Shown: positions 353-32,962 of the stretch, one piece after another
Layout: every line of letters starts with the position of its first letter
Position numbering within the stretch: the first letter of the stretch is position 1
DNA from: Piezodorus guildinii
Lineage: Eukaryota; Arthropoda; Insecta; Hemiptera; Pentatomidae
Direction: 5' to 3'
Assembly (NCBI GenBank): GCA_023052935.1
Contig: CM041294.1
Location: 24,260,641-24,324,640 of the forward strand
Length of the DNA stretch: 64,000 bases
Made by a program: the position numbers and the translations under genes
Notes under the pieces: generated by a model
The model's database searches: none
What the model saw: the letters and a program-made list of their open reading frames with translations, nothing else
Told to the model about the DNA's origin: nothing

Positions 353-580
353 ATGGACAGGGTTAGGATTCTCTACGGCGGGTACCGGAGGGTCGGACTA
401 AGGGAAGAGTGTGCATGTTGCAGGATGGAGGACTCCAGTGGGGGCTCTGTGCTTCGCGACGACCGCAGCGATTCTGGAGTGAGTTCGCTGAGGTCTGCAG
501 GCAGCGGCGATGAGAGGTCTGGCTCCAGGTCCAGTGCTCTGAGCCCCACCCCGCCCCCCAGCGTCAGGAAGATTGCAGAG
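353..580 (+). CDS. coding exon of an unidentified Ser/Gly-rich protein (5' part of a large gene)
   Basis: This is an open frame from ATG 353 to a strong donor (CAGAG|GTATGT at 580/581), 76 complete codons, so it ends in phase 0. It is GC-rich against a strongly AT-rich background. The peptide is disordered-looking: an acidic/serine stretch with RSDSGVSSLRS, then GSGDERSGSRSSALS, then TPPPSVRKIAE at the donor. DSGVSS fits the DSG-phi-x-S pattern of beta-TrCP/Slimb phosphodegrons. The start is uncertain. ATG 353 follows an in-frame stop at 344. A second in-frame ATG at 425 has a good context, and a possible acceptor (TGTTGCAG) ends at 423, so this could also be an internal exon beginning at 424. 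The next compatible exon is at 32778. I do not recognise the family; composition suggests a regulatory protein, which is inference only. Confidence 0.68.
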
Positions 581-984
581 GTATGTACTGTACTATTATA
601 TAGAGTTTAGGGTATTAGTGTAGTGTATAGCTATAGGGGTATATGAGGGTATGGACTTTATACATGTTACTACAATAAGAAACCACTCCAAACCGGTCAA
701 TCATAAGGTACAGTGTATCATTCATCACTGGAACTTTGAAAGGGTACACTCAATGCACCAAAAATACCCAAGATTTTGGGTTGGCCAATCACATTCTAAA
801 CAACTAGAGTACTTATGGTTAAGTACTCTTAATGGTTTCGTACTGCTAAGTATTTTAACCATACAGACTGAAACGACAAAAAACTGCTCGACGTTTTCGG
901 TACTCCAACACATACTGGATAAACCCTTCTAAATTCCACTTACCTACATGACTATCATACGGCCGATACGACTTACTGAGTAGA
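581..984. other. start of a very long intron
   Basis: AT-rich sequence follows the GTATGT donor. Open frames of 60-90 codons on both strands overlap each other and show no recognisable motif. I see no gene. Confidence 0.45.
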
Positions 985-1375
985 GATATGTGGCTCTACT
1001 AAACCATCAAATTCTTCCGTATCCAATCCCTGCAATCCACAATACTTCGTAAAATCCTCAATGCTCCTTACTCACGAATAAACTGATTCATTAAGACCTT
1101 AATATTCGTATTTGCTGATTTGGTCCGAATCAGATATCATTCCTTTCATGACGAACTCCAATCCCACCCTAATCCTCTAGTTTCAATCCTTTCTTCCACT
1201 TAAATTCCTGATAATCCTCCGAGGCGTCTAAAAGAACATGGCCTCGAGACCTCCTAGTTTAGAATATTTTTTCAATGCTGCCGCTGGGTAGCTTCTCTAC
1301 ATGTCTTGTTCATGCCTATTTTCATTTAGCCTATTTACTAGTTGTGTTGTTCAATACAGTTATAAATAATTAAAT
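985..1375 (+). mobile_element. jockey-type LINE 3' relic (family 1)
   Basis: Broken translation matches the C-terminus of the family seen best at 31932-32367 and 41338-41762: FRIQSLQSTILRKILNAPYS, then VRIRYHSFHDEL, IPDNPPRRLK. Several stops and frameshifts interrupt it. The 3' UTR is recognisable (CCGCTGGGTAGCTTCTC, ACAGTTATAAATAA). It is a dead, 5'-truncated fragment. Confidence 0.75.
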
Positions 1376-1560
1376 GCAGAATTTACGTAAAAACTATTTA
1401 TTTTAGTTTTAATCGTTAACATTGTTGTCAATAAAGTTAAAAACAGAAATGACTATCTGCGAGAAATTGACTATGAATAGGAAACTGCATGATCCCTAAT
1501 AACAATCTTTGAGTACTCGAAAGTTCTCTGATGATGGAGTTTTTGTTGACCGTTGAGAAA

Positions 1561-2444
1561 TTTTTTTTTTTTTTTTCAAATTGCTTTATTGAGAAGTAAT
1601 ACAATCTGCCACTATCAATAAGTATTAGAGATAAAAGAAGTCATTCATTCCATATGTACAAAGTGAAAACAAACAAAAAATAAAATACCTCAATAACAAA
1701 TGAAAAAAATAATAAAAATAAATGAAATAAAAGAAAATAATTATAATCTTGGCCACATTCATACCTATATACAATATTTACATACTGCCCCTGGGAACTC
1801 CGAATCGAACCTCTGTATCCAGAAATGGATGCCGAAGCACAATGTCAGGAGATCCCAGCGCCTCTCGTCAGCCGCGTCATCAATCTAGTCAGTGGAGACT
1901 GAGTGAGGGCGCTAGAGCCTCACACTCTCAGGCATGAGTGGAGAAGTTGGCCATTGCCAGCACTCCAATTGCGTATCTATAAGAGATCTCTCGGCCACTG
2001 CCGCCTCAACCTACGAGGAGGATTGTAAGGATGGTTGGTACTTGATAGAGATTGTGCCAGGGGATTAGGAAGAAGAGTAAGTTTCTGATGGAAAGTTGAG
2101 AATTTGGATGGGATGAGATCAAGGACATAAGGGATCTTGAGATCATGATGTAAGGTCTTGTTTGTAACATAATAGGGAGCATTGACTATTGTTCTAAGGA
2201 CTTTGGACTGAAAGGATTGGATACGTTTGATGTTCGAAAATTTAGTAGTACCCCATAGTTCAATTCCGTAGGTCCACATAGGTTTGAGAATTGTCTTGTA
2301 AATTAATAGTTTGTTTCCATCGGAAAGTAGTGATGTTCTGTTCAGTAGTCTATATAACTGTCCGTATCTTCTGTTGAGCTCTTGTCTTTTAAGTCGAGTG
2401 TGTGGGTTCCAGGTCAGTCTTTTGTCTAAGGCTTGAAAAATTAG
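1561..2444 (-). mobile_element. 5'-truncated jockey-type LINE (family 2)
   Basis: The element runs on the minus strand. Its poly(A) tail reads as the T-run at 1561-1576, the 3' UTR covers about 1577-1976, and the C-terminal reverse-transcriptase region is at 1977-2444. The UTR segment near 1840-1890 (GAGATCCCAGCGCCTCTCGT) recurs at 10460-10490, tying the two copies to one subfamily. The 5' side stops where the palindromic repeat at 2445 begins, so one of them disrupted the other. Confidence 0.82.
1977..2444 (-). pseudogene. C-terminal fragment of jockey-type reverse transcriptase
   Basis: About 155 codons are open on the minus strand. Conserved C-terminal blocks of jockey-clade ORF2 are readable in order: LDKRLTWNPHTRLKRQ, LLIYKTILKPMWTYGIELWG, IQSFQSKVLRTIVNAPYYV, and the terminal PPRRLRRQWPRDLL before the stop. 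The catalytic YADD region lies upstream and is absent, so this cannot be an active polymerase. The frame is intact, which suggests a fairly young truncated retrocopy. The same protein end occurs at 50246-50769. Confidence 0.85.
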
Positions 2445-2645
2445 ATGAGGAAGATGGTTGGGGGTGCGGTCATAAAATAGAAACACGCATTTAAAACAAG
2501 TGCTATTTTAATTATGTGCCGACGTTTCGGCCTACATTGTGGGCCTTCATCAGAGGTAAAAGAAACGTCGGCACATAATTAAAATAACACTTGTTTTAAA
2601 TGCGTGTTTCTATTTTATGACCGCACCCCCAACCATTTTCCTCAT
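2445..2645. repeat. near-perfect palindromic element with 84-bp arms
   Basis: The left arm at 2445-2528 and right arm at 2562-2645 are reverse complements with only about two differences, separated by 33 bp. The arms begin ATGAGGAAGATGGTTGGGG. The right arm matches the 3' half of the 161-bp insertion at 13040-13200, so the palindrome is two head-to-head copies of that unit or a fold-back derivative. The centre contains the hammerhead-like motif at 2524-2553. Confidence 0.85.
2524..2553 (-). ncRNA. hammerhead-ribozyme-like hairpin motif
   Basis: The minus strand reads CTGATGA, then A, then GGCC-loop-GGCC, then GAAACGTC. CUGANGA and GAAA are the two conserved strands of hammerhead cores. One extra base between CUGAUGA and the helix departs from the canonical form, and I could not define stems I and III. 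Confidence 0.4.
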
Positions 2646-3269
2646 CCAAAGTTCTCTGCGGTTTTAAAATCCTTAGCGTTACAATTAGTTAACTTTTCAC
2701 TATCTGCTTTACAAACTGTATTGTGTAGAATGTGATTGAGACTATTAGACACATCGATATCACGTATGTAGTCGGTGATCCACTCTTTCCAATTCAATCC
2801 CTCCAGTCTCACAAACAGAAACCACTCAAGAGATCAAATCGCATCACGTACTTTCATTCTGCCAGTTTGACTGAGTCGGACTTCTACGGGTTTTTACATG
2901 AGATTTTTGACTCTACTCTATACTTGTAACATTCATTTGATAAATGCCTACTGAACTGAGTTTTCTTATTATGCGAATCGTAAAATATCGATGGTATCTA
3001 AAAACCTTTGTGGATGTCCTTGTAGATTTGACTGGAATAAACAGCCATAACGTCGACATGAAATCCAACAACTTTCTAAACACGCAAATTGATCTCCGAT
3101 AATACATTAAGAAGTTCGAAATGAGTCCTTGAACTGTCCTGCTACAAATGGCCACTTTCTCCTAAAGTAACTGTCATGTCAGATTAATATGTCATCTCAG
3201 CGTGATTGTTGTATGTTACATTTACTGTTGTAAATATTATCAGATTATTCAATTTCTACCTTAGCTCTT
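2646..3269. other. intronic AT-rich sequence, no gene seen
   Basis: There is no splice-flanked open frame and no repeat shared with the rest of the window. The open frames of 65-80 codons here look random. Confidence 0.4.
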
Positions 3270-3960
3270 TATTATTATTATTAGTGCGATATCTCCCTAA
3301 AAGGAAGGCGCTAAGCACTTATGACTCAATTTTCTTTTTCTTGTTCTTTTTGTCTTGCCAGTATTGTCTCATTCTTTGGCTGAACTTCTCTTTTCTTTCT
3401 GCAGACCATTTGGGTCTGTATGGTTTCTGATTGTTTTGCTCTAAGTTACTTCCCATTTGTTTATTTTGTCTCTAAATATGTTTCTGTCTTGGATTTCTTC
3501 TTGTCTTATGTCTGTTCTTCGTAAGTCTTCTCGTGTCTGTTTGATTCAAATCGTAGTGCTTTTGAGTGTTGCTGTTGCTTCGTGTATTTGTCGTGTCAGT
3601 CTTGTTTCAGGTAGTCTTTGTATGTGCCCATAGAATTTCAGTCTTCTTTTCCTGATGTCTGTCTCGATGTTGGCGTTGTTTTTCTTGGTCCTAGTAACTT
3701 TCTGATGACTTTCCTTTCCTCTTTCTTTAGTTCTTCGGTTTAGTGCCAGTTTTTCACTCGCTTACAGTGCCATCTATTGGTTTTACAGGTTCTATTACAG
3801 TTCTGTAGTGTCTTATCTTTGTGTTGGTTGATATTGAATTTTTGTTGTATATGTTCTGTGTCATTTATAGTGCTCTCTTTACTTTCTGTAGTTTTGTCTG
3901 TTGTGCCTGTTTTTCTTGTCCTCTTGGTTCGATAATTTCCCCTTAGTATTTGAAGTGAGC
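3270..3960 (-). mobile_element. decayed non-LTR retrotransposon, C-terminal endonuclease/RT-type protein
   Basis: Minus-strand translation, with stops, gives RRLKFYGHIQRLPETRLTRQ, then DLRRTDIRQEEIQDRNIFRD, and ends RPKWSAERKEKF, QRMRQYWQDKKN before a stop near 3323. The FYGHI-R-P block is typical of the region downstream of the RT domain in RTE-like and related LINEs. The 3' end finishes in a short AAT repeat (3270-3285 region), as in LINEs with microsatellite tails. No RT catalytic motif survives. It differs from the 61689 family. Confidence 0.65.
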
Positions 3961-4639
3961 TCTTATTATTAAACTTAGATTACTTTGTATGACCTAATCT
4001 CTCAGCAGAAACTTTAGTAGTGAATTTCTTGATTTTTTTAAATGTATGTCCGTTCAAGCCTGATATAAACAGAAAAAAAATAAAATAAGTTCTCCATTTA
4101 CTAATAGCAACTTTAAATAAAAGACGTTATCAGACGAATGACGAGATTTTTTTTTACTGTGATAAAAATCACTCACTCCTTAATAAAGAATTTCTTATCT
4201 CTTAGAGCCTATTTACCATGTACACTTGTCTCGTTATCATTTAATATAATATGATAACTGTGATATCATTGCCAAAACGATAATATTACTGTCCACTTTC
4301 GTTTCCTCTTGTTTATACAAGCATACACCAATTAGATATTAATATGATAATATAAGCATAAAACTTGCGTTATTGCTGGAACTGTGGGTAAACATAGCTA
4401 CCACGTGTGAGGTGTGGTACATTTAAATCAGATGTTGTTTCATCTATAATAGTCTTGTCAGGATTCCCAAGTGCGTATCACATCCAAGTCTAATGCAACG
4501 TACACGAGACCGGTTTCTAATAATATTCACTTATTCATTCGAACTTTAATTATTTTTTTATTAATCGTAGAGTTCTTACAAAATTATGAGCTTCGTATAA
4601 TTGCATGTATGTATGGTTGTATAATTGTGCAATCATGTT
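3961..4639. other. AT-rich intronic sequence
   Basis: I see no gene or shared repeat. The 67-codon open frame around 4471-4674 has no recognisable motif. Confidence 0.4.
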
Positions 4640-4915
4640 CAGGCTATTACCCTTCCGTAAAGACTTGCGTTTAACCTTGAGTGTCTGTTAATAGATTTTC
4701 TCAGATTTAGAAATGTTAAGGTATTCATTTCATGATATATTTATCTCCTCCAATTATTTCTTTACATTTTTCGCCAATTGTTGTCGACGAAGCTTTCATT
4801 GACCTAGCTTTGTTTGACATTTAAAGCAATCTCATTCTCTTTATTTATTTATTTTTGGACCATTCTCAATTTTTTATGTTATCATTGACGTTTCTACTAG
4901 TTTTAGCTTCCACAT
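4640..4915. repeat. segmental duplication, left copy (5' part)
   Basis: This segment matches 9836-10130 in the same orientation with scattered substitutions and small indels, for example TTAACCTTGAGTGTCTGTTA in both. In this copy the duplicated unit is interrupted after CTTCCAC by Helitrons and resumes at 7380. Confidence 0.85.
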
Positions 4916-5811
4916 CTATACTAATATTATAAAGCTGAAGAGTTTGTTTGTTTGTTTATTTGAAACTACTGGTTCTAATTGAAAAATTCTTTTTGTGTTG
5001 GATAGTTCATTTATCGAGGAAGGTTATAGGCTATATAACATCACGCTGCTACCAATAGGACCGAAGAATCAGTCGAAAATCTGGGAAAAAAAACGGAAAA
5101 ATTTGGGAGAAAAAAAAAACCTCGCTTCCCAATGATTCCAAATGATTTACCTTTTATTTTTAAATAATTCAATTTCCCGTTAATTTATATTTTCCATTTA
5201 AACACGTAGGAATAGATTTACGTCGAGTTCGGGTTGCGGAGAAAATCAGTATGTTCTTCTGCCACAAGAAAAGAAAACTAAAAATGTCAGTTACGCGGAA
5301 GTACTTTAAAATATATGCTTTTAAAAACTTCTTAATAGCAATCATAATAACAGAAATTGATGCAGACGAAGTTGCTTTAGAATATATCAAAGGATGGAGT
5401 CGCAAAGGCTTGGGACCACCATTTTACGTCCCCTTCGAAGAAGGGCATAACTAAGGTTGTTTTTTACTCTCATTAAAAAATCTTAAGGGCACCTGGCTGG
5501 TCACTACATACAGGTGACCGACCCTTTTAAGCATATTGCGTTTCATATCTGTTTCGAGTGTAGGTTCCTATGAAAATATATTCAATTGTTATTTATTTTT
5601 TAAAAATGGTTTGTGACGATTATTTTTACATATTAAGTAATTATGGGTATAACCACTTCTACTGGTTCGCTATTGTAAATTTGACAGGAAGAAGTCAAGA
5701 TCGGGCTTTAAATGATAACAAAGAGTATTATTATAGCCAATCTCACCATAAACGCACATAAATTAATACGAAATGCAATATTCGCGAGCAAAGCTGCGTG
5801 ACACAGCTAGT
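4916..5811 (+). mobile_element. non-autonomous Helitron (first of two)
   Basis: It starts TCTATACTAATATTATAAAG and ends CACAGCTAG before T, fitting Helitron rules (5' TC, 3' CTRR, insertion between A and T). Positions 4916-5370 match the second Helitron (5812-7379). Past 5370 the sequence diverges and contains a SINE tail at 5413-5540. There is no Rep/helicase coding; it would have depended on a partner for movement. Confidence 0.75.
5413..5540 (-). repeat. SINE fragment (family A) inside the Helitron
   Basis: TTTACGTCCCCTTCGAAG and GGCATAACTAAGG match, in reverse orientation, the body of the SINE at 33963-34249. The tRNA-like head is degraded. It is nested in, and therefore younger than, the Helitron or its recombined right part. 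Confidence 0.6.
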
Positions 5812-6032
5812 ATTATATAACTAAAGAGTTTGTTGGTTTGTTTGAACGCGCTAATCTCAGAAACTACTGGTTCGAATTGAAAAATTCTTTTTGTGTTGGT
5901 AGTCCATTTATCGAGGAAGGCTATAGGCTATATAACATCACGCTGTGACCAATAGCGAAGAATCAGTGGAGATTTTGGGAAAAACGGGGGAAATCAAACT
6001 CGCCTCCCAACGATTCCAAATGATTTACTTTT

Positions 6033-6727
6033 TACTCACTTATACTTATACAGGCCCTCCAACTAAGTTGCCTTTTCAAGTCAGTGCTGAGCTCCAGAGG
6101 TCACGGTCAAGCCAATCCTCCTCCTGAAGACTCCGGCCCGCCATCTCCTCTTCCACTCCGCATATCCACCTACTTCTAGGTCGACCTCGTTTCCGCCTTC
6201 CGGTGGATGCCAATCCAAAACTCGGTTTGGCCATCGTTCGGTAGACATTCGTTTTACATGACCGTACCATCTTAGCCTTCGCTGTCCTATCCGCTGGTTT
6301 ACGGACCCAGGAGCCTCCATCCTGCCCGAACAACCTCATTTCTAATTCGGTCCATCCTTGTGAAACGTAAACATCTTCTCCAAAAGTCCATCTCCACAGC
6401 TTGGACTTTCGAGTAGAGCTTTCTAGACATCGTCCACGTTTCCGAAGCGTAAGTAAGGATGGGTTCTACGATGGCATAGTAGATCTTCCTCCTGTTTTCT
6501 ATTAAAAGAAGGTCATTCCATAGAACAGGATGGAGCATCACGCGGATGGCTTTACGGGCTTGTTCTACCTTTCTCCTTACGTCGATTTCGGAGGATCCAG
6601 TGGAGTCGAGGTACGATCCCAGATATTTAAATACATCTACCTTTGTGCATGTCTCATTATCAACTCGCAGATCACTGTCATCTATAGCGCTGATGGCCAT
6701 GTATTTCGTCTTACTGAATACTGACCC
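6033..6727 (-). mobile_element. LINE fragment inserted in a Helitron
   Basis: The insertion is flanked by near-identical copies of TGATTTACCTTTT (about 6021-6032 and 6729-6740), the expected target duplication. Coding is on the minus strand. The family is distinct from the jockey tails and from the 61689 family. Confidence 0.75.
6076..6700 (-). pseudogene. C-terminal fragment of endonuclease/reverse-transcriptase polyprotein, frameshifted
   Basis: The first frame gives VDVFKYLGSYLDSTGS, IYYAIVEPILTYASETW and MDFWRRCLRFTRMDRIRNEV. The reading then moves to other frames giving LRWYGHVKRM and GRRKRGRPRSRW. The YLGS..., TYASETW, WYGHV.RM and RGRPR.RW blocks are characteristic of the region after the RT catalytic core in many insect LINEs. 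At least two frameshifts break it, and no YADD motif is present. Confidence 0.8.
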
Positions 6728-6926
6728 ATGATTTACCTTTTAATTTTAAAATATTTCAATTTCCCGTTGTTATCTTTTGCCATAACAATTAATAAATCAC
6801 ATGGGCAAACGTTTAAACAATTAGGAATCGACTTACGTTAAGATCGGGTTGCGGAGAAAATCAGTATGTTCTTCTGCAACAAGAAAGTAAAACCAAAAAT
6901 CATTTACGCAGAAGTACTTTAAAATA

Positions 6927-7304
6927 CTGGGTTGTCCGAAAAGTTCGTATAGATTTTTAAAATAAAATTATATTAAGCTTCAAATGGAAGGTTTTCCCCG
7001 CCGTACTCTTCTGACACTGCTCCTTCGGATTTCCATATTTTTCGTTCCCTCAAAACTTTTCTACAAGCGAAATCCTACTCTTCACAAGATGTCGTTAAAA
7101 CGGACCTGTTATTGTTCTTTAAGAGTAAGGACAGTGATTTTTGGAAAAATATGGACATAAAGATAATGGACCTTAAAAGCTGTTGGGAAAGGGTAATCGC
7201 TAACGGTGGTAACTATTTTGTTGATTAAATAAACAAAGTTTTAGCCGTTGATCAATTTTAATTTTATATTAAATTTCTCTTTGAACTTTACCGAGAACCC
7301 AATT
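6927..7304 (+). mobile_element. internally deleted mariner-like element
   Basis: It begins CTGGGTTGTCCGAAAAGTTCG, a typical mariner terminal repeat, after TA at 6925-6926. It ends ACCGAGAACCCAA near 7302 followed by TTTA. The empty target is visible in the first Helitron (CTTTAAAATATATGC at about 5307). Only the transposase C-terminus is left. Confidence 0.8.
6995..7228 (+). pseudogene. mariner transposase C-terminal fragment
   Basis: An open frame of about 77 codons ends at TAA 7226-7228. It reads PPYSSDTAPSDFHIFRSL, then FKSKDSDFWKNMD and CWERVIANGGNYFVD. This is the end of a mariner D,D34D transposase, including the PSD(F/Y)H region that holds the third catalytic aspartate and the closing W-x-x-x-I-x-x-x-G-x-Y-x-x-D block. 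The DNA-binding half and the first two catalytic aspartates are deleted. It is a different subfamily from the three elements at 15711, 22503 and 51724. Confidence 0.85.
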
Positions 7305-7379
7305 TATTCTTTTAAAAACGTCTTAATAGCGATCATAATAACAGAAATTGGCGCAGGCGAAGTCGCGGGCAACAGCTAG

Positions 7380-7438
7380 TAAGTAATAAAAGTATTATTT
7401 TATGCCTATTTTATGTAGTTGGAATTTAATAAACAGTC
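7380..7438. repeat. segmental duplication, left copy (3' part)
   Basis: AAGTAATAAAAGTATTATTT through TAATAAACAG matches 10511-10566. It is the continuation of the duplicated unit across the Helitron insertion. Confidence 0.8.
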
Positions 7439-7974
7439 AGTTAATTTTCAGCGTTTCTATGACTTACAAGGAAACGTGGAAATATAGTAGCAACAAAAGT
7501 CAACTACAGAGATAAAAATAGATACCGCGTAAATGTCAACAAGCGTCGACGAATAAACGAGCCATTGCACAAGTGGACTTTGTTTGCTATTTCAGATTCT
7601 CTTTGGTTATTGATTTCTATTTTATACCTCACGTGGAATAAACTCCGAAAAGAAAGAAAACGAGCGATCCAGACTACTTGACAAACTTTCTCAACTTAGA
7701 CAAGCGACCGGAACTAGTCCTTTCCAAACATTCAGGAGCTAAGTTAAAAACTGAGGGCGACTTAGAAATTAAATATTCAGAAAATTTAGCGTTTTCAATT
7801 AGTTGTTTCTAGGCGGATAGTGGATGCTCCATTTCACAAGTAATGAATACAAATTATCTTAGGCCTGTGTCTAGAGAGAACATCGCTTAAAAACTTTCAC
7901 TGTGGACTTAAGCTAGCATTCCTCATTGATGAGGTCATCACATTGATTCGTTGAAGTTGTACTCCAGCCTTGAA
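7439..7974. other. intronic sequence, no gene seen
   Basis: I see no coding signature or shared repeat in this stretch. Confidence 0.4.
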
Positions 7975-9266
7975 ATATATATATATATAACTCGTGTCAC
8001 AATGTTTGTTCGCGATAAACTCTAATATTACTGAACCGACTTTGATCAAACTTCATAAGTATCAGTTATTTGGTCCAACTTAAAAGATTGGGTAGTTTTT
8101 ATTACTATTCTAAATGGTTGAAAAATATATTATTCTAAAACGTAAAACAAAATTTGTTAAACTGTGGCAACACTGGTTCCCTTATATAACCTTCCCCCCA
8201 TATCTTCACATATGTGTTATTAATTCAAATACAAGTGTGTGTTGATAGTTTCTACGCGTTCTTATTTATAAAATATACATTCACATAAAATACGTATTAG
8301 TTGGCGACGAGGATGGGATAAAATATATTTCACTCCATAGTTTCCAGTAATAATAAAAATAATAATACTGTTCAATTATTTTTAGTGTCTTAAAAAAATT
8401 CAAAGTGTTAATTTTTCGTTAAAAAAAACAATACATAAAAGAGCTTATTTCTGAATCCTAAAAAAACACGATTTTTTTCCGAAGGAAGGCCTAACAATTG
8501 AAGAAAATACGCATCTAACTTGCAAAGGAGTTATGGTGATATAGGTACAACGGTATTTCTTTTATATCACCTCATTCAACGTAGTCACTCTCAACATCTT
8601 TTAAATTTTAATTTAAAGCAAACAAAGATAATGAAGTGTAGTTTTTGTTCTATTTTCCCATGTGTCTCGATATTAGAAGCAAGATATTTATAGTTATATT
8701 AGATTAACTATAGTAATAGGTTAAGTTGTTTTGAAATCACTTTCCTCATCAACCGTAATTCTAGCTTTAGTCTTATAAGTTGCTATTTTATTCTGTTAAA
8801 TATACAACAGCGATCCAGTAGAAGTAGGCATACCCAAAATTACTCAATATATTTTATCTGTAACGTGATCGTGGTATATAGTCACGTTTGCAACATAAAT
8901 GTGATTGATATACATTGATTCAACGAATGGGAATATTTTCACTTGAAAACAACTTTGATAAATGTAATTGTTAAAAATATGATATTTATATTTCTTGAAA
9001 ATTTATACGTCTTATAATAATGGAGTAGTTGTTACTCGTTTTGACTATATGGTAAAGAAGTTGGTTGAGGGTGCAGTCACCAAGAAAACACACCAGTAAG
9101 AAAATAATAAAATAAATTACTTTTATTGGTAGCTTCTTTGTTACCACATCTCGGAACAACTGCTCTATCATATGCGTTTTATAGTCACTGCTCATAAACG
9201 CATTTATGGAAATTTAAATAAAGACAAAATGAAATATTCGCGAACAATGCCGCAGGTTGCAGCTAG
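7975..9266 (+). mobile_element. probable Helitron-like element of another family
   Basis: The 5' side begins with (TA)n followed by a segment reading TACTGAACCGACTTTGATCAAAC, a phrase common near Helitron 5' ends in insects. The 3' side ends GGTTGCAGCTAG before T, resembling the CTAG end of the other Helitrons here. There is no coding sequence. Near 9060-9085 the minus strand carries TGACTGCACCCTCAACCAAC, similar to the 3' tails of the units at 13040 and 48365. Boundaries are tentative. Confidence 0.4.
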
Positions 9267-9835: not shown

Positions 9836-10130
9836 AATTACCCTTCCGTAAATGATGATTAAAGACTTGCGTTTAACCTTGAGTGTCTGTTAATAGATTT
9901 TCTCAGATTTAGAGATGTTGAGGTATTCATTGCATGATATATTTATCTCCTGAAATTATTTCTTAACTTTTTTCGTTAATTGTAGTCGACGAAGCTTTTA
10001 TTGATCTAGCTTTATTTGGCATTTCAAGCATTCTTATTCTCTTTTTTTATTTATTTCTTTACCATTATCCAGTTTTCATGCTCATTTAATGCTATCAATG
10101 ACGTTTCTTCTAGTTTTAGCTTCCACTTAA
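9836..10130. repeat. segmental duplication, right copy (5' part)
   Basis: This is the direct-orientation match of 4640-4915, about 5.2 kb apart. This copy has no Helitron and so shows the approximate empty site. It is instead interrupted by a LINE tail from 10135. Confidence 0.85.
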
Positions 10131-10134
10131 GTAA

Positions 10135-10503: not shown

Positions 10504-10510
10504 CCACTTA

Positions 10511-21395: not shown

Positions 21396-21419
21396 AATTA
21401 TAAATATTATTTTAAATTT

Positions 21420-23332: not shown

Positions 23333-23334
23333 TA

Positions 23335-25373
23335 ATAACAGTAAGCTATTATTTACAAAAAATGAAAATTCACATATTAATTGTACATATGATTTCAGTT
23401 GATCTTTGCATCCTTAAATAAGAAAGAGTTAAATTTTAAAATACCACTGTTCTGTTATACAAACGTTCTTTTTAATTTGTAAGAAAACAATTTAATAAAA
23501 AAAACATTCATAAATAAATAGAATATAAACTTAAGTTAAATTTTAAACCGCGACTTTGGGCATAGAATGCTAGCCACTAGATCACAGGTGATCCTGAGTT
23601 TATTGTTAAAGAAATGCATTGCAGTTACCTATTTCTAATACTTAGTTATTGTTCTTTTGAAATATGTGAGTTTGGGCTTGGACGAAATGTATAGAGGGAA
23701 GCACTAATAAAATCCTCAATTTTTGTTAGAAAAAGGAAGGAAGTATTCGTAATCTTGTCACACTCATATATATATATGAGAATTGGATTACATTATTGGG
23801 TTTGCTGTATAAATAATATCTAAACAATAAAGTGTAAAAATAAAGCCATATTGGATTGAAGAGGTTTCACAAGATAGTGTGGATAGAAGCTCATACCTTG
23901 AAAAACCAGTCAGCGTAAAACATCCCAAGGATAACATTAACTGCCTCTTCATTTTTTTTTTCTTTCCTTTTTTCACGATCTGTCGCTCGAGGAATTTTTA
24001 TTGGCACAGAGCTTGTATTCATCTAGACTGGATTTTTTCCATAGTTACACCCGGACCTGTAATTGGGAATCGCGTTATTAACTCAGGAATCGTTTTACTG
24101 CTAGATTTACAATCGAAAGGTCGATTACTCCCATGTTTTTTCCTTTATATTGTCCATAATTGTAATTAATCGATCAACGCACACAACTTGTATTTACACT
24201 CATTTTATAAGTTTATCGAGTTTCTCATACTAAATGGTGTTTATAGAAAAATATTAAATTGAATCAAAGTTGATAAATTAATTAAAACGCTCACAAATCT
24301 TTTACGATCCTCTTAACTTATAAAATTTCATTCAGATGAAACTTGTAAGCATAGCGTAGAAGAACATTTTAATTAATTCTCTGTTTCTGACGAATATCTT
24401 GTTTATTATTATGTAAATATTCTTTGATACTATAATTTAGTTTTCAGGAATGTAATTAGATGATTTGAAAATAACTTCAATCCTATCTTTAATAATGCTC
24501 GTTTCAATTTGATAAATTCTTTGCTTGTAAAATTAAGCTGAACTAAAAATATTTTAGTTTATTAATGATACAAAGCGGCAACTTTTGATTCTAGAATACT
24601 GGAAAAAAACTAAAAAAAAAGTATATTTTAATTCGTGACTGATGAACTATAAATATTGATATAGTATGATTCATGATCGATATGATTGAAGGTAACTGTA
24701 AAAATATATTTTCTGCGATTTATTGTTTTGTTCTTTTATTTTAAAACGATTATTGCCATTGTGCATGCCACCAAATGCATTTTCTGAAATTAGTAATATA
24801 TTTACAAATCTAGAAAATACTTAGTGTGTATCTTATTACACTATTTAAGTCATAACTGTTGTTAAAAATTAAATACATTACTGTAAATTAGGCTTCAAAC
24901 AGCTTATTTGTAAAATAATATTTGTATATTATGGCTGATTTTTTTCTGAAAGATTTATTTAAAACCCTGTTAATTTTTTACAATTTTTATAACCTTATTT
25001 TCATTTCTAAGATATATTTTTTATAGAACTGTAAGTATTCTGAAAACGAATTAATTTTGTGATTTTACCGTTTTCATATTTGCAATTAAGAATAATATTA
25101 CATGGTAGTATTTGTTTTATTTTTTTTTTTTTTGTAATTTATTTGATAAGGCCCTCTGCAACTTGTTTTCACAACCATAATTCCATAGCTGAAGCTATTT
25201 TAGTATTTTTGTTTTTAGCTGTATTTTCTCTGAGAATATAAACGCTTGGGATAGACAAATATTTACACTGTTTATACTGAAGGTTATTTTCTGACGCTGT
25301 GCTATATCGGTTGGGTTGCGTGGTTTCGGTGTCCACTTTTAGAATATCTCATGGATGACAGTAATATAATAAA

Positions 25374-25375
<2 letters not shown>
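23335..25375. other. AT-rich intronic sequence, 2 kb
   Basis: No splice-flanked coding or shared repeat was found. Short open frames (23788-23976, 23879-24169, 25059-25241) are low-complexity. A possible SINE-head remnant (CACAGGTGATCC) lies near 23585. Confidence 0.4.
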
Positions 25376-25421
<46 letters not shown>

Positions 25422-25905
25422 ATAATTACAGGCTTACCGAACCCGAAGGTTCGATGCCGATACCACCAAACTCCGCCTGCACAGACTCGTACAATGTCCA
25501 CCGTTCAAGCCAAGCCCCTAGTTCAGCCTTAACGCAAACCTCCCATCGACGCTCCGGCCTACCTTTCGGACGCCTACCTGTCGGATTAGCGAATACCAAC
25601 TTTCTCGGAATCCATTCCTCAGCGAGCCCAATAACTTTACTCGCCCTTTAGAGTTTCCGATTTGTATCAACTCAATTATATTCATTGTTTACAAGCTCCA
25701 CGATTCCGTGTTGTGCAACCTTCTAAACTCCCCAGTGGCCTCGTCTCTCTTATATATTTTTTGCTGTGCCTTATTTTCGAAACCGTAGGAAGAATAATAG
25801 TTTTATAAATTCTAACCTTCAAGTTTTTAGACAGAAGCCGCGAGCTAAGTAATTTAGCAACGGAATACTAAAACGCATTTCCCACCTTTAACCGGGACTG
25901 GTATG
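25376..25905 (-). mobile_element. LINE 3' fragment with hairpin end (family 6), decayed
   Basis: Minus-strand counterpart of the 61689 family. The hairpin is at 25438-25453, followed 3' (leftward) by an AT/ATT microsatellite at 25377-25425. Coding blocks are recognisable (TGRRPKGRPE, FDASRRQFGQ-like ends) but frameshifted, with a rearranged segment near 25660-25690. Confidence 0.8.
25438..25453 (-). other. 3'-terminal LINE hairpin with UUCG tetraloop
   Basis: The minus strand reads CGAACC-TTCG-GGTTCG, identical to the copies at 19879 and 38419 although the surrounding coding is heavily decayed. Confidence 0.6.
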
Positions 25906-26580
25906 TATATATCACTTTCCAAGGAAGTCAGTAAACGTGTATTGCCATCAATAACTTATACATCTTTGTGCATTAAATTTTAATGAAAAAGTTGTTTCAG
26001 TTGAGTTGTGTTAAATAAATTTCAATTAGCTTAGTGTAAATATTAAACCTAATAATTAATCACTGTGCATTGTAAACGAACTTTATTGTAACAAACATAC
26101 TTCATTTTATCTTTTTAGATGGATGTTACGATTTCAATGATATGAATTTTAAAACACCGCATTCAAAGATATCTATTTATAGATACATATTAGATGAGGT
26201 AGTTCAGGCATCCGTTGTATAACATGCTATATATAACTGTTGTATAACAGTAACTAGAATATATGCACCGAAAGGTCATATACTTCTATGTGAAATGGCT
26301 TACTGCATATATAATTCCTTGCTGTTCTTCTGATTAATAAGCAATTCGTTTCTCCTTATTTAAAAGTAAAATTACCTAGTTCTTTTCCCTAGCAAGCATT
26401 ACTATTAGTTACAATAGCCACGCTATTACTTGGAAGAAAATACTTCCTATGCCAAGACCTTGAAATTCCTCTTAAAGTTTGCTGCGTTAAAAAACAATGG
26501 AGTGATTTTTCCCATGTTCACAGAAAATCGTTAGATTATAACTTCTCAAATCGGGTAATATTCTTATGAATCATTTATGG
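25906..26580. other. AT-rich intronic sequence
   Basis: No gene recognised. A TGAGGTAG octamer at 26195-26202 matches the let-7 seed, but the rest does not. Confidence 0.4.
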
Positions 26581-26790
26581 AAGCATTCTGAAACTACTAC
26601 GAATTTGGAGGTTATAATTTTGTAGATTTTAATTCTCCGAATTATTTTTATTTCCTTGTAATTATAATGTATATTAAAGCATGCAAGCATTCTGAAACTA
26701 CTACGAATTTGGAGGTTATAATTTTGTAGATTTTAATTCTCCGAGTTATTTTTATTTCCTTGTAATTATAATGTATATTAAAGCATTATT
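26581..26790. repeat. 104-bp tandem duplication
   Basis: AAGCATTCTGAAACTACTAC at 26581 is repeated at 26685, and the units are nearly identical over 104 bp (one A/G difference noticed). A simple recent local duplication with no coding content. Confidence 0.9.
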
Positions 26791-26940
26791 AGTCGTATTT
26801 GGTAAATTATTCACCAGGAAATGGTCATTTATTTGTTTTACGAGTACAATTATAATAACACTTTATGAATGTATTAGTTGGAACAATCTCTTCTTTTTAT
26901 TTATTATAACATATATAAAACTTGATTATAACAACGTAAC

Positions 26941-26972
26941 GTTTCGATGTACTTTCTATGCCTCATCTTCAG
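26941..26972 (-). ncRNA. degenerate hammerhead-like motif
   Basis: The minus strand reads CTGAAGA, a 20-nt insert with poor pairing, then GAAACGTTACG. The two core strands are conserved but the helix is not, so this is probably a decayed copy. Confidence 0.25.
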
Positions 26973-26994
26973 ATTATTAAAAATCATTTCCTTA

Positions 26995-27620
26995 TGGAAG
27001 GCATTTTGCCCCTTTTTACGATTTTCTCAAAAACGACTCGAACGATTTTGATTAAACTCGATATATCGATGTAAAATTTGATGGGCTTTAAAATATGATG
27101 TAGGTTTCATTCTGATTGAAATGGTCGGACAGGGCTTAAATGCCAATAATTTAGATTTTCTTCCTCTAAAGTACCTTTAATTGTGTAGATAAAAAAAATT
27201 TGGAACATCATCTTATTAGCATTGATAAATAACGGGTAAATATGCAAGTTGAGCGAATTTGATGTACAACTAAAGGATAAAAGTGCAAACATATTTTTTT
27301 ATGCAATTTTTGTGTTTTTGAACACAAGAATAATAATATAGATGTATAATATACCGTTGGATAGCTAAAGCTTTAAAAAAAATATCTAATACACGGAATT
27401 TTAAAGTTTAATGGAGAGTGATGAAAAGCCGATAAAACTAACTGATTGTTGTAGTTCAAAATATAATAGATTATTTAATAAAAACACATGTTTCTATCGA
27501 AATTCAAATAATTAATTCTATAACGATATATTTGTATCTTTAAATGTATTTAACAATTCTTAAATTTATTTTAACAACGGAGGTAAGTGAAAGTCGTTTG
27601 TTGCGCGCACCAGAGTTTTA
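26995..27620 (+). repeat. family R interspersed repeat, copy 2 (5'-truncated)
   Basis: It starts within the family R body (GGCATTTTGCCCCTTTTTAC) and runs to the common 3' end (GGAGGTAAGTGAAAGTCGT, GCGCACCAGA). More diverged than the copies at 14000 and 42060. Confidence 0.8.
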
Positions 27621-27689
27621 TTAGAGCAAAAGCTGATGTTTAGGGATAATGCAACCCTAAAACCCTTAAATTAATTTCTAATTTAACTT

Positions 27690-28015
27690 ATCAAGCCATC
27701 GTGGTAGAATCGTTACACGTAACGTTTACATAAACTTCGGACCCTGGTGTTAGGGCCGCCAATAGGTAGGACCCACTGATAAGAACCTGACCGCTGATAA
27801 GGCAGACCCGCCCTCCATTGTGCCAGAAAACCCTTCGTGCACTAAATGTTTCCCAGAAAGCAGGGACCTTTTACCGCTAAATGGTACCCGACCTTTCTTC
27901 TGGATGTGGTAGTCCTTGCTTGGTAAATGTGAGAGGCTCTCTGCGATGAACGAGTGAGTAATCTTTACTTTTGGAGCCTTTTTCTCTCTTGCCTCGATGT
28001 ACCGAGAAACATTTT
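27690..28015. promoter_or_regulatory. GC-rich single-copy island
   Basis: It lies between two pieces of family R. An 89-codon minus-strand frame (27750-28019) spans it but has no splice signals or domain. Two CACTGATAAG/CGCTGATAAG GATA-type motifs occur at about 27775 and 27791. A conserved noncoding element is possible; unproven. Confidence 0.25.
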
Positions 28016-28019
28016 TCAT

Positions 28020-28130
28020 TTGACTTTCACTTAGCTATAATTAAATTTATAATAAGGGAAAGTATTGCGATCTCTTTCTTAGTCTAAATAACCAAGTATA
28101 TTAAAATGGTTTGTGTGTGGTTTTTTCCTT
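28020..28130 (+). repeat. family R interspersed repeat, 5' fragment
   Basis: GACTTTCACTTAGCTATAA, then GGGAAAGTATTGCGATC and AGTCTAAATAACCAAG match the first ~110 bp of copy 1. It is displaced downstream of the 3' part at 26995-27620, so it is either a separate insertion or a rearranged copy. Confidence 0.7.
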
Positions 28131-28628
28131 GATTTTTTTCCTCTGAAATCGATTTGCCTGGAAGCTTTTAAATTTTTTAATAAACTCATTATAATAATTG
28201 GTTTGCTTGGGCTGGTAAATATTAAAAGATGTATATTTTTCTTTATTGAAATAGCCTTACAAAGCTTGTATGCCTAAATTTAAAAATGTCCTCCTATAAA
28301 GAACATTAAATTTTATTCATTTTGCAATATTATCTATTAAAATTACAATTTTCAAAAATTACAATCTTAAGGAATATATATAATCAAAGAATTGTATTAA
28401 CAGCTAAAACAGAAATATTTTACCTTGCTAAAAACTTATGTTTGTGTGTAAGAGTTGTGCTATGTAGGTCAAGATTGTAAAAATTGTTATGTGATACAAT
28501 AAGTCATTGAAGAAATCTTGTTTACGGAGGACGATGAAAAGTATATATATATTTAAGTGATTTTTATAGATTGGCCTTTTTATAGAATATAATTTCTACT
28601 TTACTAGCCATCTTATCGAACGGAACCG
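28131..28628. other. AT-rich intronic sequence
   Basis: No gene or shared repeat recognised. Confidence 0.4.
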
Positions 28629-28655
28629 TGATGACACACAATGTGGGTCGAAACG
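28629..28655 (+). ncRNA. degenerate hammerhead-like motif
   Basis: GTGATGACACACAATGTGGG then TCGAAACGTTGGC. The first core base is G instead of C. The hairpin can form as GAC-x-CAC/GTG-x-GTC. Downstream TGACTGCCATCTGGACC resembles the tails after the motifs at 13093 and 48375. Confidence 0.3.
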
Positions 28656-29146
28656 TTGGCAATACAGTAAATATTTATAACTATTCAATTGTTTTTTCTT
28701 TCACTGACTGCCATCTGGACCGAATCCCTCCTGAATTTATATCGTTATAAAATATAAGTTAGTCTAATATAAATGTTTATTTATTTATTACGAATTAAAA
28801 AAAAAAAAAATTAATGTGATAGGTTGAAGAGTTATAGATCGTTTAACAGCTCACGTCAACTATCTCACTGCTAAAAGGATAATATTCTGTTTAAATTTTG
28901 TCATTAATATAGTGTTGTATGAGATTCGTGTACCACTTTACAGAACTAAAGCCTTCAATTGATACTTTCTTCTACGTTCCTCTGCATTAACGTTGCACCG
29001 TGGAATTACATTTCTTCCTATATACGCCTTGCTTCTTCCTTAGCCTCAATCATATATCTTATTTTCCGACAAAAATAAAATTATAGTATAGATTAGAAGA
29101 AATCAATCATTTTGATGATCAGAGCTCTTTTTTTTTTTTTTTTTTT
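28656..29146. other. AT-rich intronic sequence
   Basis: No coding signature seen. A T-run at about 29128-29147 precedes the LINE tail. Confidence 0.35.
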
Positions 29147-29579
29147 ATAGTTAATGCTGCTTATTATGATACCTCGACCTTAATATTCCATTTATTTTAG
29201 ACCTTATACCTTCAAAAATCTCTAAATTCCATCAGAACCTTATCTATCACATTCTTATACAGCTCTACACATCCTTACCCATCCTCCTAGAAAGTTGAAA
29301 CGGCAGTGGTCTCGAGACCTCTTGTAACATGTATATTCGAGTTCTAGTGTTGGCTAGATTCTCCACTCACGTACTGTATGCTTGAGAATTGTATACAGGT
29401 ATGAGTGACTTTTCTATATATTCTTATTGATTCTGTTTATAAATATGTATATTATTTTAAAAATTTATTGTTTTGTATATATTGTGGGAATGCTGTACTT
29501 CATCACTATTAAAAATATCCTAAATTGGACTGATTGAAATATTACTCAATAAAGAATTGTTTCTGAAAAAAAAAAAAAC
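29147..29579 (+). mobile_element. jockey-type LINE 3' tail (family 2)
   Basis: Decayed coding end (AATGCTGCTTATTATGATAC, then CCTAGAAAGTTGAAACGGCA, CGAGACCTCTTGTAA) is followed by the family-2 3' UTR (GGAGTTCTAG-type, GGCTAGATTCTCCACTCA), a polyadenylation-like CAATAAAG near 29549 and a poly(A) tail to 29579. Heavily 5'-truncated. Confidence 0.82.
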
Positions 29580-29784
29580 CCAAAAAGCTCTTTTCATCAA
29601 TTTTTTTTTTTTTTTCTATCCTTTACAACCTTATGAATAGTTTAAAAAATTTTAATTTAATTTAATTTGGGCCGGTATGGCTTTATTTGCAATATATTAG
29701 TTCTTCTTAAGGGAACAAGTCCTAGAATAAAATTATTTTTCTAATTGTGACAAGTTGTATAACATGTTATATGTTATGTTGCAG

Positions 29785-29859
29785 GAAGCTAGCAGGAGTG
29801 TCCGAACGAGCTGGCCAGTGGGGCACCAAGCTGAAGGCCCTTCGCTCGAACCTAGCCAG
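29785..29859 (+). CDS. candidate 75-nt internal exon
   Basis: A GC-rich block in AT-rich surroundings lies between an acceptor (TTATGTTGCAG|G) and a strong donor (GCCAG|GTGAGG). 75 nt, so it preserves frame. Two frames are open. Frame 0 (EASRSVRTSWPV...) joins cleanly with the phase-0 ends at 580 and 32778. The +1 frame (AGVSERAGQWGTKLKALR) looks more protein-like, but would need a phase-2 upstream exon and splicing at 32780 instead of 32778. It could be an alternative cassette of the large gene, or an exon of a different transcript. Product unknown. Confidence 0.45.
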
Positions 29860-30254
29860 GTGAGGCACATTTCTTGTTTACTTTGGTCTCCTCCCTCAAC
29901 AAAAGGTCTTTTCAACCTAAGCTCCTACTTCTTTCACTGATCAAAACGCTCCTCTTTCTCTCCCTCTCTGTCCTCATTCCTTCATTACTCCGTTTCCTTC
30001 TTTAATTACTTGATTTTTTTTTAAACTTCAAAGACTTGTTGCGACTCTTCTTTTGGTCCTTTGGTTTGTGTTTGTGTACACGGGCCGTTCGAATTAGATT
30101 GTAGAAAATAAGATAAAGTTCTATAAATCAAAATGAACTTTTAAAAAACTAAAAACAGTATATTAAACATCCAGAATTACTAACTGGAAGTCGTGAAACA
30201 TTGAAAAATAAATCAGTTTGTAGAATAAAAAATGGCTCTGTTTTATTTTATTTT
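29860..30254. other. intron after candidate exon
   Basis: Pyrimidine-rich sequence (CTCCTCTTTCTCTCCCTCTC near 29950) followed by AT-rich sequence. No further coding seen. Confidence 0.4.
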
Positions 30255-31055
30255 ATCGTGAAAATTTTCAAATTTCAGTTTTCAACGGAAACTGTGGTAA
30301 CTCCCGGGTGGAAACGGTAAGTCCTATGAAACTGAAATTTCATATTTAAGACAAATATGCGCCCGAGACGTTAAAAAATGTTTTTCATCAAAATGAGCTT
30401 ACCAGAAGAGCAACTTTATACCATGCATTTTGCACCTTTTTTCGATTTTCTCGAAAGCGGTTCCAACTATTTTGATTAAACTCACTATATCGATGTAAAA
30501 TTTAATGGGCTCTGATTTCATTTAGGTTTCATTCGGATTAAAATGGTCTGACAGGGATTAAATGCCGATAATTTAAATTTTCTTTCTCTAAAGTACCTTT
30601 AATTTTGTGGATTCTATAAAAATAACTATATTATCTTGTTACCACTGATAAAAAACAGGTAAATATATAAATTGAATGAATCCGATACCCAACTAAAGAA
30701 GACAACAGAAAAAAATATTTTTTTAATAAAATTTTTTGTTTTTGAACATAAGAGCAGTAATATACATGTATGATATACCGTTGGAAAGCTAAAGATTTTA
30801 GAAAAAATATTATCTTATACTCATTCTTTTAAAAGTTAATAGAGAGTGATGAAAAGAAGATAAAACTAACTGATTATTTTAGATAATAATATAATAGATT
30901 TTTTAATAAAACACATGTTTCTATATAAATTAAATTTAATTAATTCTTAAATGGTTTCACTCATTTTTATCTCAAACTTACTTGAAAATTCTTTATTCGA
31001 TTTTAAAAACGAATTTCACTTACCGCGAAAGTCGTGTGTTGCCCGCACCAGATTT
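30255..31055 (+). repeat. family R interspersed repeat, copy 3
   Basis: It begins GTGAAAATTTTCAAATTTCA and runs through the shared body (CTCCCGGGTGGAAACGGTAA, CATGCATTTTGCACC) to GTCGTGTGTTGCCCGCACC. It is missing the first ~40 bp. Close in sequence to copy 1. Confidence 0.82.
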
Positions 31056-31576
31056 TTTTATTTCATCTTTGTTACTAAACAATTAGTAATGAAAAACGCA
31101 TGTTATGCATTAAATTTGTATTATATTAATTAAAAACTTCTGTATAAAACAGTTTTCTCAGAAAGAATTAAAAAACCACGTTTACATTTGCCGCGCTTAA
31201 AGTTCATGGTTCTTTGCCTTGTATCGAACTGACAGCCCTGACCTCATGTGGGAGACAAATTGTGTATTCATTCGAGACAAGTTCTCGAAACCTTCATCCC
31301 AAACCACTGCATATCATGCTATATTGACCGATAGGCTCAAGGGCGTTTTATCATTCAGCTAATGAATCTGCTAAATCAAAAATATTTCCTCGTTTTATTA
31401 TTTTTAAATTGTTTATTGAACCCCGACTGCAACGTTAAACAGTGACCATTTTTCTTCAAATAAGGCTTAACATTGTTAGGATAGTCGTATTGAAATATCT
31501 TTATCAAAACTTATTGTGGCTTTTAATTATTTTTTTTTGTTAATATTATTTTATTTCTTTATTATAGTTAAAAATA
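31056..31576. other. intronic sequence with moderately GC-rich patch
   Basis: Positions 31180-31380 are less AT-rich and single-copy in the window; I cannot assign them. Confidence 0.35.
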
Positions 31577-32500
31577 TGGTGCGGGGAACACACGACTTTC
31601 ACTTACCTCCGTTTTTAAAATCCATTAAAGAATTTTCAAATACTGTTAGAGATAAAACTTAATGAAACCAATAAAGAATTAATTAAATTGAATTTTTGTA
31701 TAAACATGTTTTATTAAAAAACCGATTATATCATTATCTTGAAAAATAAGTTTTATCGACGTTACATCACTTTTTATCAACTTTAATAAGCTTGTGTATA
31801 AGATAATATTTTTTCTAAAATCTTTAGCTTTCTAACGGTATATTATACATGTATATTACTGTTCTTATGTTCAAAAACAAAAAATTGGATTAAAAAAATA
31901 TTTTTTCTGTTTTCACCTTTAGTTGTTTATCGTTACCATCATCAGATCTATCTGGAGATATGGATTCGAGCTTTGGGGCTCTACTAAACCATCTAATAAT
32001 CCATAATCCTTCGCAATATCCTAAATCTTCTTATTTCGTTACGAATAAAATCATTCATAATGACCTAAATATCCCATTTGTCGCAGAACTAGCCCGAAAC
32101 AGATATGTCTCTTTTCATTCCAAACTCCCAACCCACACGAATCCTCTTGTACGCAACTTATCATTCCCATATATTCCTGACAACCCTCCGAGGCGATTGA
32201 AAAGACGATGGCCTCGAGACCTACTTTAGTTAAATTGACTTTGAAGTGGTGACACTGGGTGGTTTCTTCACAAGACATTATCACGCCCATAGGTGTAAAT
32301 TAGCCCATTTACTTGTTGTATATATTGTATGTACAGTTGTAAGTATCAATAAAATATTTAAAAAAAAAGTTGTTTATCAAATTCACTAAACTTTCATGTT
32401 TAGCTGCTATTTATCAATGATAACAAGATAACATTCGTATAAAAATTACTTGGGACAAATTAGTTCTCCCTGTTAATGATAAAATGTTAATGACCTAGTT
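31577..32500 (-). repeat. family R interspersed repeat, copy 4 (reverse), split by a LINE
   Basis: The reverse-orientation 3' end (GTGCGGGGAACACACGACTT) starts at 31577. The body reads on to 31931, is interrupted by the LINE at 31932-32367, and resumes at 32379 (TTTATCAATGATAACAAGAT) for about 120 bp before fading. Confidence 0.78.
31932..32367 (+). mobile_element. jockey-type LINE 3' insertion (family 1)
   Basis: Direct repeats AGTTGTTTATC (31921-31931 and 32368-32378) flank a 436-bp insert inside family R. Decayed frame 31960-32229 ends NPPRRLKRRWPRDLL. The 3' UTR ends with CAATAAAATATTTAAAAAAA. A clean example of nesting and 5' truncation. Confidence 0.88.
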
Positions 32501-32777
32501 TATTGCACTAAAAAGATTTATCGTCAGCATTAGTTGTTTTACAAGTGTGTTCAACAGTATGGACTCAGAACGTGGATTTATAATTATTCATTTGCGAATG
32601 TCAGATAATATCAATAAGGAAAGTTTTTTATTTACCTTTTTATAGCCTATTGTTACAACTTTTAAAATGGTATACCTTAAGGTTACTCCCCGCGCCCTAT
32701 TCTGTTGCTCCTATTTACCTCCTCCTGCCCTATTGTATTATGTTTATGTTGTATTGTATATTGTATTTATGTTTTAG
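32501..32777. other. intron upstream of the proline-rich exon
   Basis: AT-rich sequence ending in a T-rich tract and acceptor (ATGTTTTAG at 32770-32777). No coding seen. Confidence 0.4.
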
Positions 32778-32962
32778 AGTTGGCGAGAGAGCGGCGGCGG
32801 TGGTATGTCCGGCCCGCCTGGGTACCCCGCCCACGGGCTCCTCATCCCCCCGCCCTCGGCCATCTACCCCGCGCTGCCCCCAGAGCTGTGGCCCCCAAAG
32901 CCGCCGCCCCACTCCAGGTTCCCGCCTCCAGACATCTACCAGGAGAGGTTGATATCCAACAG
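32778..32962 (+). CDS. proline-rich coding exon of the same large gene
   Basis: A GC-rich exon is bounded by an acceptor (TTTTAG|AG) and donor (AACAG|GTCAGT). 61 codons plus two bases, so it starts in phase 0 and ends in phase 2. The peptide runs SWRESGGGGMSGPPGYPAHG, then LIPPPSAIYPALPPELWPPK, then PPPHSRFPPPDIYQERLISN. It is proline-rich, ending in a short helical-looking segment. It joins in frame to the exon at 353-580 (…SVRKIAE + SWRES…). An internal ATG at 32805 could serve an alternative transcript. The acceptor has AGAG, so a +2 shift (start 32780) is possible. No downstream exon is found before 64000. I do not recognise the family. Confidence 0.72.

What the first reader, a model, noticed from the sequence alone, without database searches (positions are those of the whole stretch)
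353..32962. Two phase-compatible GC-rich exons define an unidentified gene with a ~32-kb intron
Exons 353-580 and 32778-32962 stand out by composition, by clean GT/AG borders and by matching intron phase 0. Together they predict a Ser/Gly-rich then Pro-rich protein segment. The window is otherwise nearly free of host coding, so this is probably the gene the whole region belongs to, and its further exons lie outside.
Basis: partly seen in the sequence, partly recalled or inferred. Interest (0 to 1): 0.75.

Follow-up and report, generated by a model that had tools for sequence, protein, structure and literature searches.

The report
Two exons of giant KDM3 gene
The two short exons are real and belong to the bug's only detected copy of the gene for the histone demethylase KDM3, a well-known chromatin enzyme, whose coding region here is stretched over about 638,000 bases by huge introns that hold transposon remains.

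Summary
The finding holds up. Both stretches are real exons of one gene, in order, across a 32,197-bp phase-0 intron, and the gene can be named: the insect orthologue of the JmjC histone demethylase KDM3 (JHDM2/JMJD1C). The Cimex lectularius orthologue (annotated [quoted passage not shown]) carries both peptides in order. The window's own genome gives 17 colinear matches to it, all on one contig and strand; start to stop codon spans 638,257 bp. My 16-exon model (15 introns, all GT/AG) reads as one open frame of 1675 aa, 1162 of 1607 aligned residues identical to Cimex. One correction: in the main transcript exon 1 starts at 424 (ttgcag|GATGG), not 353; an upstream exon 21.4 kb away ends in AG and completes a split Arg codon, as the Cimex protein predicts (...SSPFR|MED). 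353-423 is at most an alternative first exon. The next exons start 72.7 kb and 92 kb after exon 2. No RNA evidence was available. The gene is ordinary; its size and a Ser-rich segment in exon 1 are of mild interest.

The parts
424..580 (+). Coding exon (second in my 16-exon model) of the KDM3 orthologue: MEDSSGGSVLRDDRSDSGVSSLRSAGSGDERSGSRSSALSPTPPPSVRKIAE; starts with the third base of a split Arg codon, ends in phase 0
   Evidence: 81% identical to Cimex P0028 residues 474-527 (tblastn; that match starts at 419, 5 bases before the exon)
353..423 (+). Open, GC-rich (0.56) stretch from ATG 353 to the acceptor; not in the main transcript by homology, possibly an alternative first exon or 5'UTR
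   Evidence: in-frame TGA at 344-346; 21 of 23 residues kept in one close relative P0002, not kept in P0003; of the 45 proteins found only P0002 holds it
581..32777 (+). Phase-0 intron, 32,197 bp, gtatgt...ttttag, with transposon remains
32778..32962 (+). Coding exon (third in my model): SWRESGGGGMSGPPGYPAHGLLIPPPSAIYPALPPELWPPKPPPHSRFPPPDIYQERLISN + split R; fast-evolving Pro-rich segment, ends in phase 2
   Evidence: SW 116 to the Cimex segment against a shuffle maximum of 78; not reported by tblastn or genome search at their cut-offs
32963..64000 (+). First part of the next KDM3 intron (72,705 bp; next exon at window coordinate 105668 = C3:24366308)

Best explanation
The two exons encode part of the N-terminal half of the insect KDM3 (JHDM2/JMJD1C) histone demethylase. 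Shown by sequence: one gene on contig C3, + strand, from an ATG at 23,756,205 (start by homology) to a stop at 24,394,461; exon order; phases; a C-terminal JmjC domain with HxD...H residues; Cys-rich segments upstream of it; and a DUF7030 domain at the N terminus. Inferred from the family: the protein removes H3K9me1/2 and keeps genes active. Inferred from composition only: the exon-1/exon-2 segment is a flexible Ser-rich then Pro-rich linker used for regulation rather than catalysis. Giant introns hold the exons apart and must be spliced out.
For: The Cimex KDM3 homologue carries both peptides in order with a JmjC domain. In the own genome 17 matches at E<=0.001, 17 of 17 on C3 + strand and colinear (lower bound, 20 candidates scored). 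Model of 16 exons, 15 of 15 introns GT/AG, one open frame of 1675 aa, 1162 of 1607 aligned residues identical to Cimex. JmjC PF02373 5.7e-14 in the model and DUF7030 PF22989 5.4e-19 in the first exon's peptide; both are listed for Cimex P0028. Best PDB sequence matches of a peptide from three of the JmjC exons are human KDM3B (2.7e-77) and JMJD1C (1.3e-65). 17 of the 19 proteins listed have the JmjC signature after the exon-1 motif.
Against: No RNA evidence for the 580-32778 junction in this species. Exon 2 alone passes no database cut-off and rests on position, phase and the alignment. The exon at -21240 was likewise not reported; it was found from a short tblastn match (E 0.27-0.77) and by eye. 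Cimex residues 235 to about 430 are low-complexity, so exons may be missed. No tree was built. Enzymatic activity is inferred.
Confidence: 0.97

Rival explanations
1. Exon 1 with its left edge at 353 is a true alternative first exon: a second promoter starts a short KDM3 isoform (MDRVRILYGG... or from ATG 425) that lacks the N-terminal DUF7030 region.
For: 353-423 is open, GC 0.56, and 21 of 23 residues are kept in the close relative P0002; after the exon-1 donor only 4 of the first 6 residues match before the frames part, a very short comparison. The beetle entries P0031, P0033 and P0043 begin close before the same motif (SDSG at residue 22, 17 and 17).
Against: Of the 45 proteins found only P0002, a 91-aa prediction, holds the stretch; none of the 19 does. 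P0003, another relative, does not keep it. The Cimex protein runs from ...SSPFR straight into MED, and the matching upstream exon with AG|gt exists here. Beetle short forms may be annotation artefacts.
Confidence: 0.25
2. The two exons belong to two different genes, or exon 2 is an isolated chance ORF.
For: Exon 2 is Pro-rich, and neither tblastn nor the genome search reported it.
Against: Cimex holds both in order; phases fit on both sides of exon 2 (phase 0 in, phase 2 out, completed by G of the exon at 105668); its score is far above shuffles and it is the best open stretch over 105 kb.
Confidence: 0.02
3. The segment is from a transposon or a retrocopy rather than a working host gene.
For: The introns hold reverse-transcriptase and mariner remains.
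Against: The gene keeps its introns, only one copy was detected, it is open over 1675 codons and colinear over 638 kb.
Confidence: 0.01

Closest known systems
Cimex lectularius KDM3 orthologue (annotated: probable JmjC domain-containing histone demethylation protein 2C isoform X3; P0028)
   Same: Both peptides in order, flanking sequence, JmjC domain, DUF7030; 1162 of 1607 aligned residues identical
   Different: Exon-2 segment is 62 residues here and 75 in Cimex; a run of 16 Ala-Gln pairs in the big exon here, at most one such pair in a row in Cimex
Drosophila Kdm3 (PMC10081847: outline, abstract and section 9 seen)
   Same: By family assignment the same insect gene; the paper says Kdm3 prevents cryptic piRNA production, acts antagonistically to egg, and needs Hfp for splicing
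   Different: Not compared at sequence level here; in Drosophila it shares a 5'UTR with CG8176, which could not be tested here
Human KDM3B / JMJD1C (PDB 5r7x, 2ypd)
   Same: A peptide from the C-terminal exons matches at E 2.7e-77 and 1.3e-65
   Different: The exon-1/exon-2 peptide has no PDB match of note (best E 0.65) and was not compared with full vertebrate KDM3 proteins

Membership tests
KDM3 (JHDM2/JMJD1) histone demethylases | C-terminal JmjC domain | tested here: met
   PF02373, E 5.7e-14, best stretch residues 1495-1595 of the model; KDM3B/JMJD1C best PDB matches
KDM3 (JHDM2/JMJD1) histone demethylases | Fe(II)-binding HxD...H of JmjC enzymes (motif recalled) | tested here: met
   HLDISDAVNVM at model residue 1449 and PAGAPHQV from 1575, both also in Cimex; the Pfam stretch starts after the HxD
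KDM3 (JHDM2/JMJD1) histone demethylases | Cys-rich zinc-finger segment upstream of JmjC | tested here: met
   CRECR at 908 and CDVCETT...CGKCGFVVCIDC at 1022-1047, aligned with Cimex; Pfam called no zinc finger at E<=0.01
KDM3 (JHDM2/JMJD1) histone demethylases | Orthology: colinear match to named insect KDM3 proteins | tested here: met
   17 of 17 genome matches on one contig and strand, in order; no tree built
KDM3 (JHDM2/JMJD1) histone demethylases | H3K9me1/2 demethylase activity | not testable with these tools
   needs an enzyme assay
KDM3A, KDM3B or KDM3C (JMJD1C) subgroup | Assignment to one vertebrate paralogue | tested here: inconclusive
   insect entries are named 2C, 3A or 3B alike; a passage of PMC2579438 places one Drosophila KDM3 in a clade with four human KDM3 genes

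The most novel reading that the evidence does not exclude
KDM3 of this bug has two promoters: one at 23.756 Mb for a long form with the DUF7030 module, and an internal one just before window position 353 for a short form that starts at M353 or M425. The short form skips about 0.5 Mb of intron and lacks the N-terminal module, so its amount would not depend on transcribing through introns that H3K9 methylation could silence. Linked to it, the exon-1 segment DDRSDSGVSSLRSxGSGDERSGSRSSALS, whose DSGVSS fits the beta-TrCP/Slimb degron pattern DSGxxS (pattern recalled), would tune KDM3 turnover by phosphorylation across insects.
Probability: 0.15. Interest if true: 0.45.

Novelty: new member of a known kind. 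Interest (0 to 1): 0.2.

Why it matters
It settles what the window is: a tenth of one very large KDM3 gene, with 342 coding bases found in 64 kb. It shows that composition and splice cues alone picked out true exons 32 kb apart. A 638-kb coding span for a chromatin enzyme that in Drosophila prevents stray piRNA production is a useful case for asking how large transposon-bearing introns affect such a gene.

Tried and rejected
Rejected: my first guess that the gene is GSE1. The Pfam search for it did not complete, and the downstream exons proved to be KDM3. Direct splicing of exon 2 to the big exon at 125103 with its tttcag acceptor breaks the frame (sequence); this pointed to a missing exon, found at 105668 with the help of the Cimex protein. 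Pfam and PDB searches with the joined peptide gave nothing of note (best E 0.21 and 0.65). Rfam: 0 matches in the window at gathering thresholds. Viral contigs: 18 pattern matches for P0002, none a relative. Literature: 0 papers held all four terms of a GSE1/Drosophila search; of 578 papers in a JMJD1C/degron search the 8 listed do not mention JMJD1C; of 126 papers in a Kdm3/gene length/intron/Hemiptera search the 6 listed do not mention Kdm3. The tblastn of Cimex residues 201-480 and of the matching leafhopper part against 324 kb around and upstream of the window printed no row at E<=0.5, not even the known exons there, so it says nothing. Counts of the exon-1 motif are biased, because the proteins were found through that motif.

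Full report
What was claimed. A reader without tools pointed at two GC-rich open stretches, 353-580 and 32778-32962, with GT/AG borders and matching phase 0, and proposed one unidentified gene with a 32-kb intron.

The observation. Both stretches are there. GC is 0.65 at 424-580 and 0.70 at 32778-32962 against 0.32-0.38 beside them. The donor 580|gtatgt, the acceptor ttttag|32778 and the donor 32962|gtcagt are canonical. The left edge at 353 is not a splice site: it is an ATG 6 bases after an in-frame TGA at 344-346.

Identity. The joined peptide found 26 proteins at E<=10. The best, P0002 (2.3e-38), covers exon 1 only. Others, such as a Timema protein (P0004), show DDRSDSGVSSLRS..SGDERSGS.SSALS followed by a Pro-rich stretch ending in ERLIR or similar. 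The own genome is held: the window is C3:24260641-24324640. Reading 150 kb downstream showed a 739-codon open frame at window coordinate 125076 and JmjC exons from 130 kb. A peptide joined from three of these exons matches human KDM3B and JMJD1C structures (E 2.7e-77 and 1.3e-65) and Pfam JmjC.

Linking the N-terminal exons to JmjC. A search with a composite protein, scored on its first part only, found the Cimex lectularius KDM3 homologue at E 2.7e-23 and, with a composite that follows the final model from M353 on, at 1.6e-23. Its sequence reads ...DDDDGPLPASSPFR MED...SGDERSGSRSSALSTTPPPTQRKVSE QVWREGGM...PPELW...GRLMR ...AVHKHFEESLRLAQSK RNNMGWINSLPGP.... Of the 19 proteins listed, 19 hold the SDSG core and 17 the JmjC signature (not P0029, a read-through gene model, nor P0040, 907 aa). 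A W[RKQ][DE] motif follows the core in 16 of 19 with the strict pattern and in 17 of 19, within 91 residues, when one Ser/Cys difference is allowed. The proteins were found through this core, so its presence is partly a selection effect.

Gene model. With Cimex as guide I placed 16 exons from window coordinate -21240 to 133821 (coordinate w is C3 24260640+w). All 15 introns are GT/AG, one frame is open over 1675 codons to a stop, and the other two frames have 73 and 145 stops. Global alignment with Cimex gives 1162 identities in 1607 aligned residues. Introns around the window are 21,444, 32,197, 72,705 and 19,287 bp. The exon at -21240..-21021 ends in ...SSPF-AG|gt; exon 1 opens with G ATG after ttgcag, the AG being 422-423, restoring Arg where Cimex has it. 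Exon 2 ends in AG and the exon at 105668 opens with G, again restoring Arg; that exon ends in phase 0, as the one at 125103 needs. Joining exon 2 directly to 125103 breaks the frame, so the intermediate exon is required.

Weak points of the model. The exon at -21240 surfaced only as short tblastn matches (E 0.27-0.77) and was read by eye. Neither it nor exon 2 was reported by tblastn of Cimex KDM3 at E<=0.01 or by the genome search.

Exon 2 on its own. It evolves fast. Its alignment to the Cimex segment scores 116 against a maximum of 78 in 2000 shuffles, and in six frames of 581-105650 it is the best open stretch of 20 or more codons; the only other hit at 45 or more is the reverse strand of the same place.

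Whole gene. Searching the genome with Cimex KDM3 gave 17 matches, all on C3, + strand, in order: residues 1-57 at 23,756,205, 52-112 at 23,902,051, 141-206 at 23,913,973, 205-234 at 23,945,821, then exons of the model to 24,394,378. The first starts with ATG (MSFKIREEIVGKRF...), aligned with residue 1 of Cimex, and its peptide carries DUF7030. From this ATG to the stop is 638,257 bp. No second copy was listed; the tool scored 20 of its 20 candidates and calls such counts lower bounds. The gap from 23.946 to 24.239 Mb may hide low-complexity exons; most of it was not read.

The stretch 353-423. It is open and GC 0.56. In P0002, an unnamed close relative, 21 of 23 residues are kept; after the exon-1 donor 4 of the first 6 residues match and then the frames part. 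In P0003 it is not kept. Of the 45 proteins found in the three searches only P0002 holds it. Three beetle entries start close before the same motif, so a short isoform starting in this exon is possible but not shown.

How it works. By family membership the protein demethylates H3K9me1/2 (PMC2579438, passages seen, for human KDM3A and KDM3B). In Drosophila, Kdm3 prevents cryptic piRNA production, acts antagonistically to egg, and depends on Hfp for splicing (PMC10081847, outline, abstract and section 9 seen). The window exons code for part of the N-terminal half; that this part is disordered and regulatory is inference from its composition.

Novelty. An ordinary orthologue of a known enzyme. 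The size of the gene and the Ser-rich segment are the only points of interest. The few papers listed touch neither, which is weak evidence because only 8 of 578 and 6 of 126 were listed and the library is partial.

Noticed in passing
window 61659-62612 (+), 45297-45959 (+): Reverse-transcriptase ORFs (PF00078, 3.7e-14 and 6.7e-6, the latter below the curated cut-off), i.e. retrotransposon remains inside the KDM3 introns. ORFs at 1977-2507, 6299-6739, 17509-18012, 18438-18896 and 50206-50769 look alike by eye but gave no Pfam hit.
   Followed up: partly
window 15935-16261 (+), 22729-23067 (-): Mos1/mariner transposase HTH_48 fragments (3.7e-11, 2.8e-8); a similar ORF by eye lies at 51766-52143.
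   Followed up: partly
window 26577-26786: Two tandem copies of a 104-bp unit, 98% matching: a recent duplication.
   Followed up: no
L013:1103-3265 (KDM3 exon at window coordinate 125103-127265): Run of 16 Ala-Gln pairs in the KDM3 coding sequence; Cimex and the leafhopper P0035 have no more than one pair in a row.
   Followed up: partly
window 32778-32962 against P0028-P0046: The stretch VRHVHSVQHQxLLMSH, common after WRD/WRE in other insects (14 of 19 proteins match my pattern for its first part), is missing from this bug, Cimex and Nesidiocoris: a possible loss in true bugs. P0037, P0038 and P0041 also failed the pattern and were not looked at further.
   Followed up: partly
window 467-493 (SDSGVSSLR in exon 1): DSGVSS fits the beta-TrCP/Slimb phosphodegron pattern DSGxxS (recalled) and sits in the best conserved part of exon 1.
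   Followed up: partly
L004:8760-8979 (upstream KDM3 exon): Lys/Glu-rich low-complexity exon ending ...DDDDGPIPLSSPF with AG before the donor; not listed by the similarity search.
   Followed up: yes
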